Positions 1,482-5,206 of a stretch of DNA of 5,206 nucleotides are shown here, one piece after another. The notes beneath the pieces are model-generated. The model ran no database searches, was not told the origin of the DNA, and saw only the letters and a list, made by a program, of their open reading frames with translations. Each line of letters begins with the position of its first letter. Within the stretch, counting starts at the first letter, position 1. The stretch covers positions 1-5,206 of the forward strand of contig JAEYXI010000487.1 of the NCBI GenBank assembly GCA_023428515.1, given 5' to 3'. Position numbers and translations under genes: made by a program. This DNA is from Pseudomonadota bacterium. GTDB taxonomy: Bacteria; Pseudomonadota; Alphaproteobacteria; Rhizobiales; Rhizobiaceae.

Positions 1482-3257
1482 ATGAAAGCACGTGATTTCC
1501 TGCCGCGCGCGGGAGCGGCAACGCTTGCCTTCGCCGGGTTCGGCGCAGGCGCCGCGATTGCGTTCGTAGGCGACGGTTCAGATGCGGCACGGCTGCGCGA
1601 GGCGGCGGCTGCCGAATTACGGAAGGCCGCGCATTGCCTTGTCGCTGCCGTCTCGCCTGATCTGCAGGATACTGCGGCAGTGAAGGCCTATGAAGAAGGC
1701 GACGTGCCGCTGTGGAATGATCTCGGCTCGTTGACCTACCCGATCAGCACGACGAACGCTGAAGCGCAGGCCTATTTCGATCAGGGGCTCAAGCTCGCGG
1801 CGAACTTCAATCATGCCGAGGCGCAGCGCTCTTTCCGCAAGGCCCAGCGTCTCGATCCGGACTGCGCACTCTGTTTCCTTGGCGAGGCGTTGATCCTCGG
1901 ACCCAACATCAACGTGCCGATGGCGCCTGAGGCGAATGGGCCGGCGCTGAAGGCATTGCAGAAGGCGCAGGCCCTGGCGGGGAACGCGACCGACAAGGAG
2001 AAGGGGCTGATCGAGGCTGTAGCGACGCGCTATTCGGGCGACCCGAAGGCGGAGCGGCCGAAGCTCGACGCGGCTTTCGCAGATGCGACATCGGCGCTGT
2101 CAGACAAATATCCCGACGACCTTCTGCTGGCGGTGATCGCTGCGGAAGCGGGCATGGATACCCAGCCCTGGGATTATTGGGAGCCCGGCGGCAAGGAGCC
2201 GAAGGGCCGCGGCGCCGACATCCAGAGGCGTCTCGAGGCGGTTCTGGCGAAGAGTCCGAACGATCCTTGGGCGATGCATCTCTATATCCATTTCGTCGAG
2301 GCTTCCGACCGCCCCGAACGCGGTGAGCCTTATGCCGATCGCCTTGCCGCGCTGATGCCCGGAGCAGGGCACATCGTGCACATGCCGAGCCATATCTACT
2401 ACCGGATCGGTCGCTACGCGGACTCGCTCGATGCGAACAAGGCGGCGTCCAAGGTTGACGAAAGCTACATCACCCAGACCGGCGCGGTGGGGGTCTATCC
2501 GATCGGCTACTATTCCCACAACATCCACTTCGTACTCGTGTCGGCTGCGCTGCTCGGCGAAAAGGCCACCGTCCTCGAACAGGCCGACAAGCTCGACAAA
2601 TGGCTGAGCAACGAGGTCGCGACGGCAATACCGATCGCCCAGCCGGTCAAGGCGGCGCCATACTTTGCCTGGGCGCAATATGCCGACCCGGACACGGTGC
2701 TCGCACTGCCTGATCCTCCTGGCGCACCGCCCTATGTAAAGGCGATGTGGCACTATGCGCGGGGAACCGCTCTTGCGACGAAGAAGGATGTCGCAGCAGC
2801 TCGTGCCGAGGCGGGTGCCATCCAGAAGATACTGACGGAGACTGACTGGTCGACGCTCGACGCCTGGGCAATCCCGGCGCGGCCCGTGCTTGAAGTCGCC
2901 GGCGCCGTGGTGCTTGCCCGAGCCGCTCAAGCGGAAGACAATCAACAAGCTGCCGTCGAACTCTTAACGAAAGCTGCCGCGGCGCAGGATGCCATTCCTT
3001 ATATGGAGCCACCGTTCTGGTATTATCCGGTGAGGCAGTCGCTCGGCGCCGCGCTTCTGGCGACCGGCCGTCCGGATGACGCCAAGAAGGAATTCCAGAT
3101 GGCGCTGGAACGCGAGCGAAGCAGCGCCTGGGCTCTCTATGGGTTGAAGGAAGCAGCCAAGGCCAAGGGCGACGCGCTGGCCGAACAGAATGCTTCCGAC
3201 GAACTTTCCAAAGCTTGGCGGGGCGATCCTGCGATGCTCACCCTTGGGCGACTGTAG
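1482..3257 (+). CDS. Exported or membrane-anchored TPR-repeat protein with conserved His/Cys motifs
   Basis: A 591-residue protein with a good ribosome binding site (GGGAGG 1471-1476, five bases before ATG). Residues 1-29 have basic residues and then a Gly/Ala-rich hydrophobic stretch, so it is probably exported or membrane-anchored. There is no lipobox or twin-arginine motif. From about residue 84 it follows a widespread, poorly characterised bacterial family: YFDQGLKLAANFNHAEAQRSF (98-118, a TPR helix pair), DPDCALC (125-131), LGPNINVPM, QPWDYW (228-233), HLYIHFVEAS (266-275), GHIVHMPSHIYYRIGRY (296-312) and SHNIHF (345-350). A clear TPR pair near the end runs from about 515 to 560. The clustered histidines 266, 270, 297, 300, 304, 346 and 349 are conserved in the family as I recall it, and suggest metal or cofactor binding; this is inference. 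No enzymatic function is known to me. It is single or second in a unit with the hydrolase and converges on the regulator gene through a shared terminator. Confidence 0.85.
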   Translation: MKARDFLPRAGAATLAFAGFGAGAAIAFVGDGSDAARLREAAAAELRKAAHCLVAAVSPDLQDTAAVKAYEEGDVPLWNDLGSLTYPISTTNAEAQAYFDQGLKLAANFNHAEAQRSFRKAQRLDPDCALCFLGEALILGPNINVPMAPEANGPALKALQKAQALAGNATDKEKGLIEAVATRYSGDPKAERPKLDAAFADATSALSDKYPDDLLLAVIAAEAGMDTQPWDYWEPGGKEPKGRGADIQRRLEAVLAKSPNDPWAMHLYIHFVEASDRPERGEPYADRLAALMPGAGHIVHMPSHIYYRIGRYADSLDANKAASKVDESYITQTGAVGVYPIGYYSHNIHFVLVSAALLGEKATVLEQADKLDKWLSNEVATAIPIAQPVKAAPYFAWAQYADPDTVLALPDPPGAPPYVKAMWHYARGTALATKKDVAAARAEAGAIQKILTETDWSTLDAWAIPARPVLEVAGAVVLARAAQAEDNQQAAVELLTKAAAAQDAIPYMEPPFWYYPVRQSLGAALLATGRPDDAKKEFQMALERERSSAWALYGLKEAAKAKGDALAEQNASDELSKAWRGDPAMLTLGRL

Positions 3258-3282
3258 GCACGCCCGGCTATCCGCCTGGTTT

Positions 3283-3310
3283 AAAACCCCGGCGCATCCG
3301 CCGGGGTTTT
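3283..3310. terminator. Bidirectional intrinsic terminator between convergent TPR and ampR-like genes
   Basis: A perfect 12-bp stem (AAAACCCCGGCG 3283-3294, CGCCGGGGTTTT 3299-3310) with a CATC tetraloop. Read on the plus strand it ends in TTTTATT, 25 bases after the TPR stop. Read on the minus strand it ends in TTTTAAA just after the regulator gene. The minus-strand stop codon TAA (3311-3309) overlaps the outer two bases of the stem. This symmetrical A-stem-T form serves both converging genes. Confidence 0.9.
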
Positions 3311-4190
3311 ATTGCGGATCGGGTGCCTGCCGCAGCAGCCACGATGAGAAAGCTTTCATCGCACCGGTCGTGACCTTGGTCTGCAGCTTGGTGAGCCAGT
3401 AGCTTCCCTTTGAAATCGAGGCCGGGAACGGCTGGACGATTGTTCCAGAGGCGAGCAGCCTCGGAAACATGAGCGGAGGCGCCAGCGCGACGCCGGCGCC
3501 TTGCGCCGCCGCCTCCATCATCGTCATGGAGGAATCGAACACGATCCCTCTCAGCGGTGATGAAGGGGTTTTGAGCCCAGCCGCTGCGAACCAGTCCGGC
3601 CATTCGTCGTTTCGGTATGACCGAAGCAGAGTGTATCGGGTGATGTCTTCTGGCGACGAAAGACCTGCCGCTATTTCGGGAGTACAGAGTACGGACAGCG
3701 GTGCTTCAAAAAGCTCGACGGCATCCAGCCCATGCCATGCGCCGGTTCCAAACCGGATGGAATAGTCCAGACCTTCGGCGGCGATGTCGACCCGGTTGTT
3801 GTTGGTCGACAGTCTGACATCGACGAAAGGCGCTTCGTTCCTAAAACTTTGCAAGCGCGGTAGAAGCCAGCCCACGGCGAATGTTCCGACAGCACCGAGC
3901 GCCAGCACCTCCCTGATGTGACCGTCCTCGAAGCGATCCAGGGCATCCCCGATCCGGTCGAATGAATCGCGGACGACCGGAAGCAGAGCCTGCCCCTCTT
4001 CCGTCACCATCAGGCCACGAGGCAGTCGCCTGAAAAGGGAGACGTTCAACGTTTCCTCGAGATGTTTGACTTGATGGCTGACCGCCGCTTGCGTGACGCA
4101 GAGTTCGATCGCCGCACGGGTAAAACTGAGATGGCGGGCCGAAGCCTCGAAAGCACGCAAAGCGTTGAGCGGAAGTCTCTGGCGGTCCAT
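3309..4190 (-). CDS. ampR: LysR-type transcriptional regulator, AmpR-like beta-lactamase regulator
   Basis: A 293-residue LysR protein of the length usual for AmpR. The N-terminal winged helix-turn-helix runs from about residue 7 to 65 (PLNALRAFEASARHLSFTRA, then VTQAAVSHQVKHLE), and the effector domain from about 93. The match with enterobacterial AmpR, recalled from memory, runs through the whole protein: RRLPRGLMVTEEGQALLPV, STNNNRVDIAAEGLDYSIRFG, LLRSYRNDEW, VFDSSMTMMEAA and KGSYWLTKLQ. Residues known from AmpR genetics and structure fall at identical numbers: Gly102, Thr103, Asp135, Ser221 and Tyr264. AmpR is a cytoplasmic DNA-binding tetramer, repressed by the UDP-MurNAc-pentapeptide precursor and activated by anhydro-muropeptides. 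The start is firm: an in-frame TAG lies at 4223-4221 with no ATG, GTG or TTG between. No clear Shine-Dalgarno is visible. It is divergent from a B3 beta-lactamase 113 bases away, which it probably controls. GcvA is the nearest alternative family, but GcvA-type context is absent. Confidence 0.88.
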   Translation of the reverse strand: MDRQRLPLNALRAFEASARHLSFTRAAIELCVTQAAVSHQVKHLEETLNVSLFRRLPRGLMVTEEGQALLPVVRDSFDRIGDALDRFEDGHIREVLALGAVGTFAVGWLLPRLQSFRNEAPFVDVRLSTNNNRVDIAAEGLDYSIRFGTGAWHGLDAVELFEAPLSVLCTPEIAAGLSSPEDITRYTLLRSYRNDEWPDWFAAAGLKTPSSPLRGIVFDSSMTMMEAAAQGAGVALAPPLMFPRLLASGTIVQPFPASISKGSYWLTKLQTKVTTGAMKAFSSWLLRQAPDPQ

Positions 4191-4303
4191 GGCACAAATG
4201 AGTTTTTCTAATGGCTGTCGCTACATTTCATCGTTTGCGAGTTCGGTCCAGCTTGAATTACCAGTCGCCGGACAGGCGGATCGGGGTTCGGAGACAATAG
4301 GAC
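4191..4303. promoter_or_regulatory. Divergent control region between ampR and the B3 beta-lactamase gene
   Basis: These 113 bases must hold both promoters, as in classical ampR-ampC regions. They are more AT-rich at the regulator end (4195-4260). A TTGCGA at 4235-4240 is a possible -35 for the beta-lactamase gene, just downstream of the AmpR-box match, but no convincing -10 follows at 16-18 bases. That would be consistent with an activator-dependent promoter, though it is not proof. The beta-lactamase ribosome binding site is probably GGAG 4290-4293, ten bases from ATG. Confidence 0.6.
4214..4228 (+). promoter_or_regulatory. Candidate AmpR operator (AmpR-box-like sequence)
   Basis: GCTGTCGCTACATTT matches 11 of 15 positions of the Citrobacter-type AmpR box TCTGCTGCTAAATTT as I recall it, including the GCTA and ATTT blocks. 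It also overlaps a generic LysR T-N11-A element (T4218, A4230). Its place, 76 bases before the beta-lactamase ATG and 24 bases from the regulator ATG, suits activation of one gene and autorepression of the other. The consensus was recalled, not searched. Confidence 0.5.
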
Positions 4304-5164
4304 ATGAGAAAAATATTGGTATTCGCTGCCGGCATCAGCGTCGCTGCCGGCATAATGTCGTCGCCTGCCGCCCGGGCGGAGCAACCTGCTGCCTGGTCGG
4401 AACCGACGAAGCCGTTCAAGATCGTGGACGACATCTACTATGTGGGGACAAAGGGGCTTGCGTCCTACCTGATCGTGTCAGACGGCGAAGCAATCCTTCT
4501 CGACGGCACACTCGAGGAGAATGTCGGCTACATCGAACAAAACATCCAATCGCTCGGCTTCAAGGTCGAAGACGTGAAGATCATCATCAACACGCATGCT
4601 CATTACGACCACGCCGCGGGGATTGCCGGACTGAAACGTGATACCGGCGCGAAAGTTATGGCAATGGAACAAGAGCGTTCGGCGCTGGAAAGCGGAAGGC
4701 ACGAGGGCGACAACATTTATGGGGCGACACGTTTCCCGGCAGTCAAGGTCGACCGCGTCCTGCATGATGGCGACACGATTTCGGTAGGCAGCGTCACGAT
4801 GACCGCAACACTGACGCCGGGCCACACAAAGGGCTGCACCACCTGGTCAATGAGCGCCAAGGATGGAGCAGCCACGCGGCAGGTGGTGTTTCCGTGCAGC
4901 TTGACGGTCGCCGGAAACAAGCTCGTCGGCAATGCCGGTCATCCTGCGATCGTCGAGGACTATGAAAAAAGCTTCGAGATCGTGAAGTCGATGAAGGCCG
5001 ACGTCGTTCTGCCCGCCCACCCGGAGTTCGGCGATCTCTTTGGCCGGAAAGCGAAGCGGGATGCGGGCGACGAGGACGCGTTCGTGGATCGAGGACTATT
5101 GCGAAAGCTGGCCGACACGTCCCGCGCGGCTTTCGAGAAAGAACTCAAAGCGGCGCAGAAGTGA
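4304..5164 (+). CDS. bla: Subclass B3 metallo-beta-lactamase (BJP-1-like)
   Basis: A 286-residue precursor. Residues 1-25 form a Sec signal peptide (MRK, hydrophobic core, cleavage likely at ARA|EQ), giving a periplasmic enzyme of about 261 residues. The zinc ligands of subclass B3 are all present: NTHAHYDH gives His98, His100, Asp102 and His103 (standard 116, 118, 120, 121), TPGHTKGCTTW gives His174 (196), and LPAHPEF gives His239 (263). Ser199 in PCSLTVAGN takes the place of the Cys221 found in B1/B2 enzymes, as is usual for B3. FPAVKVDRVLHDGDTISVG and VEDYEKSF are further B3 family blocks, and the overall match is closest to BJP-1 of Bradyrhizobium among the enzymes I recall. Expected role: zinc-dependent hydrolysis of penicillins, cephalosporins and carbapenems. 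The start is fixed by an in-frame TAG at 4298-4300. It is divergent from ampR and its own terminator follows. A related lactonase or other hydrolase activity is a less likely alternative. Confidence 0.88.
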   Translation: MRKILVFAAGISVAAGIMSSPAARAEQPAAWSEPTKPFKIVDDIYYVGTKGLASYLIVSDGEAILLDGTLEENVGYIEQNIQSLGFKVEDVKIIINTHAHYDHAAGIAGLKRDTGAKVMAMEQERSALESGRHEGDNIYGATRFPAVKVDRVLHDGDTISVGSVTMTATLTPGHTKGCTTWSMSAKDGAATRQVVFPCSLTVAGNKLVGNAGHPAIVEDYEKSFEIVKSMKADVVLPAHPEFGDLFGRKAKRDAGDEDAFVDRGLLRKLADTSRAAFEKELKAAQK

Positions 5165-5180
5165 AAATCGGACTTCAGAG

Positions 5181-5206
5181 AAAAGCCCGGGCGTCATCGC
5201 CCGGGC
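5181..5206 (+). terminator. Terminator of the beta-lactamase gene, cut by the window end
   Basis: AAAA (5181-5184) leads into a perfect 9-bp inverted repeat (GCCCGGGCG 5185-5193, CGCCCGGGC 5198-5206) with a TCAT loop, 16 bases after the stop codon. The expected T run would begin at the first base beyond the window, so the terminator is incomplete here but its form is clear. Confidence 0.8.

What the first reader, a model, noticed from the sequence alone, without database searches (positions are those of the whole stretch)
3309..5164. AmpR-type regulator paired divergently with a subclass B3 metallo-beta-lactamase
AmpR normally sits beside class C (ampC) or class A serine beta-lactamase genes. 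In Stenotrophomonas AmpR controls the B3 enzyme L1, but the gene adjacent to ampR is the class A enzyme L2. Here the direct divergent partner is a B3 zinc enzyme with a complete ligand set. This suggests a self-contained muropeptide-induced carbapenem-hydrolysing module in an environmental, probably rhizobial, genome. The pairing is seen in the sequence; regulation and induction are inferred.
Basis: partly seen in the sequence, partly recalled or inferred. Interest (0 to 1): 0.7.

Follow-up and report, generated by a model that had tools for sequence, protein, structure and literature searches.

The report
AmpR regulator paired with zinc beta-lactamase
A bacterium, probably a relative of soil rhizobia, carries the classic sensor of penicillin damage directly beside a gene for a zinc-dependent penicillin-destroying enzyme, with the sensor's DNA control site between them; the wiring is read from sequence and has not been tested in cells.

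Summary
[quoted passage not shown] The regulator matches AmpR better than GcvA and keeps G102, T103 and Y264, where GcvA differs. The strongest new evidence is an operator at 4199-4239: a matrix from 45 ampR-class A/C/D loci, none B3, scores it 41.9 bits; 400 kb of random sequence reached 0.3. The site lies 48-79 bp before all nine rhizobial B3 genes examined (53% identity or more), five of which lack a divergent ampR, and was absent from 34 more distant B3 loci. Control by AmpR, in cis or trans, is well supported by sequence; induction and carbapenem hydrolysis are inferred. Beside AmpR in 57 Rhizobiaceae genomes: class D 18, C 17, A 10, PBP1A-family 6, B3 3, none 3. The pair is rare but recurrent. 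AmpR control of a B3 enzyme (L1) was known, so this is a new variant of a known kind. 'Self-contained' overstates it: muropeptide uptake and processing need other genes, and AmpG was not found in the two closest genomes.

The parts
3309..4190 (-). ampR: LysR-type regulator of the AmpR group, 293 aa; S38, K42, G102, T103, D135, S221, Y264 present
   Evidence: ORF; Pfam HTH_1 + LysR_substrate; AmpR structures are the best matches; trees; residues checked against GcvA
4199..4239 (+). predicted AmpR operator
   Evidence: matrix from 45 non-B3 ampR loci: 41.9 bits; random maximum 0.3 in 400 kb; same element before 8 further rhizobial B3 genes
4191..4303 (.). 113-bp divergent intergenic region presumed to hold both promoters; a simple sigma-70 consensus scan of 3200-5206 found no promoter
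4304..5164 (+). subclass B3 metallo-beta-lactamase gene, 286 aa, no named B3 family; ligands H98 H100 D102 H103 H174 H239
   Evidence: NF033105 336.9 bits vs cut-off 240; the named B3 families among the 25 models shown all score below their own cut-offs; PDB 8u00 and BJP-1 3lvz; alignment
3283..3310 (.). perfect 12-bp inverted repeat with a 4-base loop between the TPR gene and ampR, candidate terminator for both strands
   Evidence: read by eye; not listed by the terminator scan
5185..5206 (.). GC-rich hairpin (9-bp stem) just after the B3 gene at the window's edge, candidate terminator
   Evidence: listed on the - strand; the scan found 3 terminator-like sites against 2.0 expected by chance, so weak

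Best explanation
This is an ampR-bla unit in which the beta-lactamase is a subclass B3 zinc enzyme. AmpR binds the 41-bp operator beside its own start codon (predicted from sequence). Without drug it keeps the B3 promoter low, bound to UDP-MurNAc-pentapeptide; when a beta-lactam disturbs wall synthesis, anhydro-muropeptides are imported, trimmed by NagZ, escape removal by AmpD and turn AmpR into an activator; the B3 enzyme is made and exported to the periplasm (all inferred from AmpR biology, including A. tumefaciens, a member of the same family). In relatives the same operator before B3 genes would let an AmpR encoded elsewhere act in trans.
For: AmpR best structure matches; G102, T103 and Y264 as in AmpR, different in GcvA; AmpR group in the tree; B3 identity; operator at 41.9 bits from a B3-free matrix; operator before 9 of 9 rhizobial B3 genes examined, 48-79 bp from the start, and none in 34 more distant B3 loci (20, 14); a pattern form with up to three mismatches gave 7 hits in six whole genomes (about 37 Mb), each at an ampR or a B3 gene, and its reversed control gave none; in M. 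albiziae the two hits are an ampR and the B3 gene, on different contigs. NagZ and an AmpD-type amidase domain in three relatives. Published: AmpR is needed for inducible AmpC, and loss of AmpD derepresses it, in A. tumefaciens (PMC9238390, passages).
Against: No binding, expression or induction data. The window's own genome is not held. AmpG model: no match in G281 and G199, 150 bits against a cut-off of 350 in G094. S38, K42, D135 and S221 are shared with GcvA and do not discriminate. In Caulobacter the metallo-beta-lactamase BlaA is constitutive and independent of recycling (PMC13046382, passages), and in Phytobacter a divergent LysR represses a B3 gene without relief by penicillins (PMC12434095). 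Some AmpR loci score low with the matrix: SFO-1 -3.0, R. etli 8C-3 -13.8. The motif was first seen by eye in a listing that included the window, although the matrix letters come from 45 other loci.
Confidence: 0.8

Rival explanations
1. AmpR binds and represses the B3 gene, but beta-lactams do not induce it under normal conditions; the pair acts as a silencer or follows wall metabolism.
For: CARR-CAR-2, a divergent LysR-B3 pair, represses and is not relieved by penicillins; Caulobacter BlaA is constitutive.
Against: CARR is described by its authors as poorly conserved with AmpR, whereas the window regulator is closest to AmpR and keeps G102, T103, Y264; AmpR in A. tumefaciens is needed for induction.
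Confidence: 0.12
2. The neighbours are functionally unrelated: AmpR governs itself and distant genes, and the B3 gene sits there by chance.
For: Local gene order is fluid: tblastn of the window's TPR and hydrolase proteins had no hit in any fetched locus, and not every rhizobial B3 gene has an adjacent ampR.
Against: Divergent B3-ampR order with operator in three Rhizobiaceae genomes and the window; operator before B3 genes without divergent ampR.
Confidence: 0.04
3. The enzyme is a B3-like hydrolase whose main substrate is not a beta-lactam.
For: B3-like proteins outside B3 exist in the library (HARLDQ family, 219.7 bits here, below its cut-off of 350).
Against: Passes the curated B3 cut-off with a full HHH/DHH ligand set; relatives 86-93% identical (P0002, P0004, P0006) carry beta-lactamase names from uncultured-bacterium records, whose basis I did not check.
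Confidence: 0.04

Closest known systems
ampR-ampC of Enterobacterales, Pseudomonas and A. tumefaciens
   Same: Divergent order, AmpR regulator, operator of the same layout (the ACT-9 plasmid locus scores 24.3 bits with the rhizobial matrix)
   Different: Partner is a zinc enzyme of an unrelated fold instead of a class C serine enzyme
Stenotrophomonas AmpR with L1 (B3) and L2 (class A)
   Same: AmpR governs a B3 enzyme through muropeptides (PMC5574705, passages)
CARR-CAR-2 (Phytobacter) and the CAR-1 locus
   Same: Divergent LysR regulator next to a B3 gene, for CAR-2 (PMC12434095, passages); a LysR gene directly upstream of CAR-1 is mentioned there
   Different: CARR is described as poorly conserved with AmpR and is not relieved by penicillins
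VarR-VarG of Vibrio cholerae
   Same: LysR regulator divergent from a metallo-beta-lactamase, derepressed by penicillin G (PMC5595328, passages)
   Different: Its authors could not settle VarG's subclass by motif; the locus includes an efflux pump
Sphingobium and Sphingomonas ampR-B3 pairs (L022, L021)
   Same: AmpR (60% identical) divergent from a B3 gene, related operator (32.5 and 20.8 bits)
   Different: B3 only 32% identical, Glu in place of the first zinc-ligand His

Membership tests
AmpR regulators | LysR HTH plus AmpR-type effector domain; closer to AmpR than to GcvA | tested here: met
   in the tree GcvA and three GcvA-like paralogues fall outside (SH-aLRT 94, with a long-branch warning)
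AmpR regulators | Residues S38, K42, G102, T103, D135, S221, Y264 | tested here: met
   all seven present; only G102, T103 and Y264 separate AmpR from GcvA. Role of S38, K42, G102, D135 from PMC8401664 and PMC3660660 passages; T103, S221, Y264 are the positions where chain 3kot differs from 3kos
AmpR regulators | Operator in the divergent intergenic region | tested here: met
   41.9 bits at 4199-4239; a sequence match, not a binding test
AmpR regulators | Curated NCBIfam model | tested here: inconclusive
   no AmpR model among the 25 shown; PenR 377.6 of 625 and GcvA 282.6 of 288 bits, both below cut-off
AmpR regulators | Muropeptide-dependent induction of the neighbouring gene | not testable with these tools
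   needs expression data
Subclass B3 metallo-beta-lactamase | Curated B3 profile cut-off | tested here: met
   NF033105 336.9 vs 240 bits
Subclass B3 metallo-beta-lactamase | Zinc ligands HxHxDH, H, H | tested here: met
   H98 H100 D102 H103 H174 H239
Subclass B3 metallo-beta-lactamase | Beta-lactam hydrolysis | not testable with these tools
   needs enzyme assay
Named B3 families BJP, CAU/MBL1b, L1 | Score above the family's own cut-off | tested here: not met
   BJP 260.2 of 600, CAU 301.3 of 500, L1 156.9 of 560: a B3 enzyme without a named family
Canonical AmpG-AmpR-bla pathway | AmpG permease in the genome | tested here: inconclusive
   window genome not held; G281 and G199 without a match, G094 150 bits of 350

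The most novel reading that the evidence does not exclude
In Rhizobiaceae the AmpR operator, more than the ampR-bla neighbourhood, is the conserved unit: one muropeptide sensor has been wired to all four Ambler classes (A, B3, C, D) and to a PBP1A-family synthase, in cis or in trans, and in alphaproteobacteria B3 genes were captured by it at least twice. In Ensifer-type loci one AmpR has two operator sites, one before a PBP1A-family gene and one before a B3 gene, so a beta-lactam would call up wall synthesis and drug hydrolysis together.
Probability: 0.6. Interest if true: 0.65.

Novelty: new variant of a known kind. Interest (0 to 1): 0.5.

Why it matters
It shows, at sequence level, that the AmpR sensor is not tied to serine beta-lactamases: the same regulator type and operator stand before zinc enzymes, which inhibitors of serine enzymes do not stop (general knowledge). 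Environmental B3 genes may thus be quiet until induced. The operator matrix gives a simple sequence test for AmpR control of beta-lactamase genes in rhizobia, linked to ampR or not.

Tried and rejected
Conserved wider synteny: the window's TPR and hydrolase proteins had no tblastn hit in the fetched loci (many loci hold only 1.5 kb of flank). TPR homologues on plasmids are led by Skermanella and Sinorhizobium at 50-53% identity and do not settle the host. Sigma-70 promoter scan: none found. The genome-contig scan gave ten B3 loci, nine of them 35-44% identical and without ampR in the stretch held. Papers: no direct AmpR-B3 pair in searches (open-licence PMC, listings plus passages of some papers); the SMB-1 report was not held, so a pair published in a subscription journal is possible. 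No structure prediction was run. Tree caution: the six B3-paired AmpRs as one clade are rejected (p-AU 0.015) but the four rhizobial ones are not (0.128); the groups were chosen after seeing a tree. Hence 'at least twice', three on the best tree.

Full report
What is there. The window (5206 bp) holds the end of a transporter-like gene (read by eye), an alpha/beta hydrolase, a protein with a weak TPR motif, and then the pair in question. Bases 3309-4190 on the minus strand encode a 293-residue LysR protein; bases 4304-5164 on the plus strand encode a 286-residue metallo-beta-lactamase. The genes diverge across 113 bp. No whole genome is held for the window. A protein identical to the enzyme is listed on one 6.7-kb contig, so the source is probably a metagenome contig (inference).

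The regulator is AmpR. The best solved-structure matches are the AmpR effector domains of P. aeruginosa (E 2.6e-86) and C. freundii (2.4e-64), ahead of GcvA (1.9e-57). Of seven residues tied to AmpR function, all are present; G102, T103 and Y264 differ in GcvA (P, S, F), while S38, K42, D135 and S221 are shared with it. In a tree of 72 rows, GcvA and three GcvA-like paralogues lie outside the AmpR set (SH-aLRT 94, not starred, with a warning about long outgroup branches). The nearest rows are the AmpRs of G281 and G199 (79-80% identical by tblastn), which also stand next to B3 genes, and that of R. etli 8C-3 (78%), which does not.

The enzyme is B3. It scores 336.9 bits with the B3 equivalog model (cut-off 240); the named B3 families among the 25 models shown are all below their own cut-offs. 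The closest solved chain is 8u00, then BJP-1. Ligands H98, H100, D102, H103, H174 and H239 are present.

Conservation of the pair. B3 genes of this kind are rare: 7 of 394 genomes of G001's family at E <= 1e-40, 7 of 385 of its class at 1e-35, 14 of 397 of its order at 1e-40; the samples share at least G001, and G758 is in the last two. G001 is the genome of M. albiziae locus L001. Of the seven family-level genomes, three (G281, G199, G094) have ampR directly divergent; G273 has ampR about 1.4 kb away beside a PBP1A-family gene; G001 has a 36% identical LysR gene upstream and its AmpR on another contig; G068 and G104 have no close AmpR near the B3 gene and an AmpR beside a class D gene elsewhere. 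None of the other order- or class-level B3 loci fetched had a close AmpR in the stretch held. In the plasmid collection two sphingomonads have ampR-B3 pairs with a distant B3 enzyme; five other plasmid B3 hits (H5-H9) were not fetched.

What AmpR is paired with. Of 297 family-level genomes, 57 have an AmpR at E <= 1e-100 (a threshold relative to the window's own AmpR, so biased toward it). ORFs near it were compared by BLAST with ten seed proteins: class D 18, class C 17, class A 10, PBP1A family 6 (one of these, G273, also has a B3 gene nearby), divergent B3 3, none 3. One genome counted as class A (G300) also has a class C gene behind it. Nine partner proteins were scanned with NCBIfam, three class D, three class A, two class C and one PBP1A-family protein (the last from the E. 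canadensis plasmid), and all passed the class cut-off; the rest of the assignments rest on BLAST alone. On the careful tree the five partner labels need 13 changes against a minimum of 4.

The operator. Upstream regions of the AmpR loci show one shared element a few bases from the ampR start. A 41-bp matrix was built from the 45 Rhizobiaceae loci with class A, C or D partners; one locus (G283) was anchored by hand. The window's best site is 4199-4239 at 41.9 bits. A reverse reading of the same place gives 10.7; the next site elsewhere in the window is -11.4; sixty random sequences of window length peaked at -0.3 and 400 kb of random sequence at 0.3. The five other B3-paired AmpR loci score 52.6, 50.7, 37.8, 32.5 and 20.8; eight PBP1A loci 26.1-32.5. 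Results against a universal site: SFO-1 -3.0, R. etli 8C-3 -13.8 (it shows a similar element of different length by eye), and orphan ampR genes G015 and G269 about -28; the third orphan, G001, keeps the site (46.1).

Control in trans. The same element lies just before B3 genes without a divergent ampR: M. albiziae 49.4, N. galegae 41.0, E. canadensis 49.9, G273 50.0, G068 33.8 bits. With the four divergent rhizobial pairs (window, G281, G199, G094) this makes 9 of 9 rhizobial B3 loci examined, 48-79 bp before the start codon (N. galegae with a GTG start as called). Many more relatives exist in the protein collection and were not examined. Of more distant B3 loci (25-47% identity), 20 (threshold 8 bits) and 14 (5 bits) had no site; this leaves out the two sphingomonad pairs, which have one. 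A pattern form over six whole genomes hit seven places, each an ampR or a B3 locus, and its reversed control none. The pattern missed the weaker sites before G068's B3 gene and G273's ampR. For N. galegae no ampR was seen in the 12.9 kb held; its other replicons were not searched.

Mechanism. Shown by sequence: regulator type, enzyme type, operator-like site, spacing. Inferred: binding, repression, induction by muropeptides, export. Support from the same family: AmpR-dependent inducible AmpC in A. tumefaciens (PMC9238390, passages) and import by YejBEF-YepA in place of AmpG (PMC9790009, abstract and passages). The AmpG model found nothing in G281 or G199 and a sub-cut-off match in G094; NagZ was over its cut-off and an AmpD-type amidase domain was present in all three. 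That domain is broader than AmpD. I did not search for YejBEF-YepA.

Known or new. AmpR-dependent expression of a B3 enzyme is established for L1 of Stenotrophomonas (PMC5574705, passages). Divergent LysR-metallo-beta-lactamase pairs that are not AmpR are known: CARR-CAR-2 (PMC12434095, passages) and VarR-VarG (PMC5595328, passages). I found no paper on a direct AmpR-B3 pair in searches; a public plasmid record already annotates one as 'ampR_2' beside a B3 gene. Verdict: new variant of a known kind, well supported in sequence, function untested.

Noticed in passing
L050, L045, L106, L118 and others (18 loci): AmpR divergent from class D (OXA-type) beta-lactamases is the commonest pairing in the Rhizobiaceae sample; one paper search (listing only) showed no report of such a pair that I recognised.
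   Followed up: partly
L020:801-3254, L024, L072, L101, L102, L114, L115, L116: AmpR divergent from a PBP1A-family peptidoglycan synthase with an operator-like site (26-32 bits) by the ampR start; in E. canadensis and G273 a B3 gene with its own site follows about 1.4 kb from ampR.
   Followed up: partly
L021 and L022: The sphingomonad B3 enzymes linked to ampR have Glu in place of the first ligand His (ExHxDH).
   Followed up: no
L112 (G015) and L113 (G269): Two of three ampR genes with no beta-lactamase neighbour also lack the operator beside them; the third (G001, L075) keeps it.
   Followed up: no
G281, G199: No match to the AmpG model in genomes that carry the ampR-B3 pair, in line with the alternative muropeptide importer published for Rhizobiales.
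   Followed up: partly
window 1482-3257: A 591-aa protein with weak TPR matches below cut-off, about 50% identical to proteins on Sinorhizobium and Skermanella plasmids; function unknown.
   Followed up: partly
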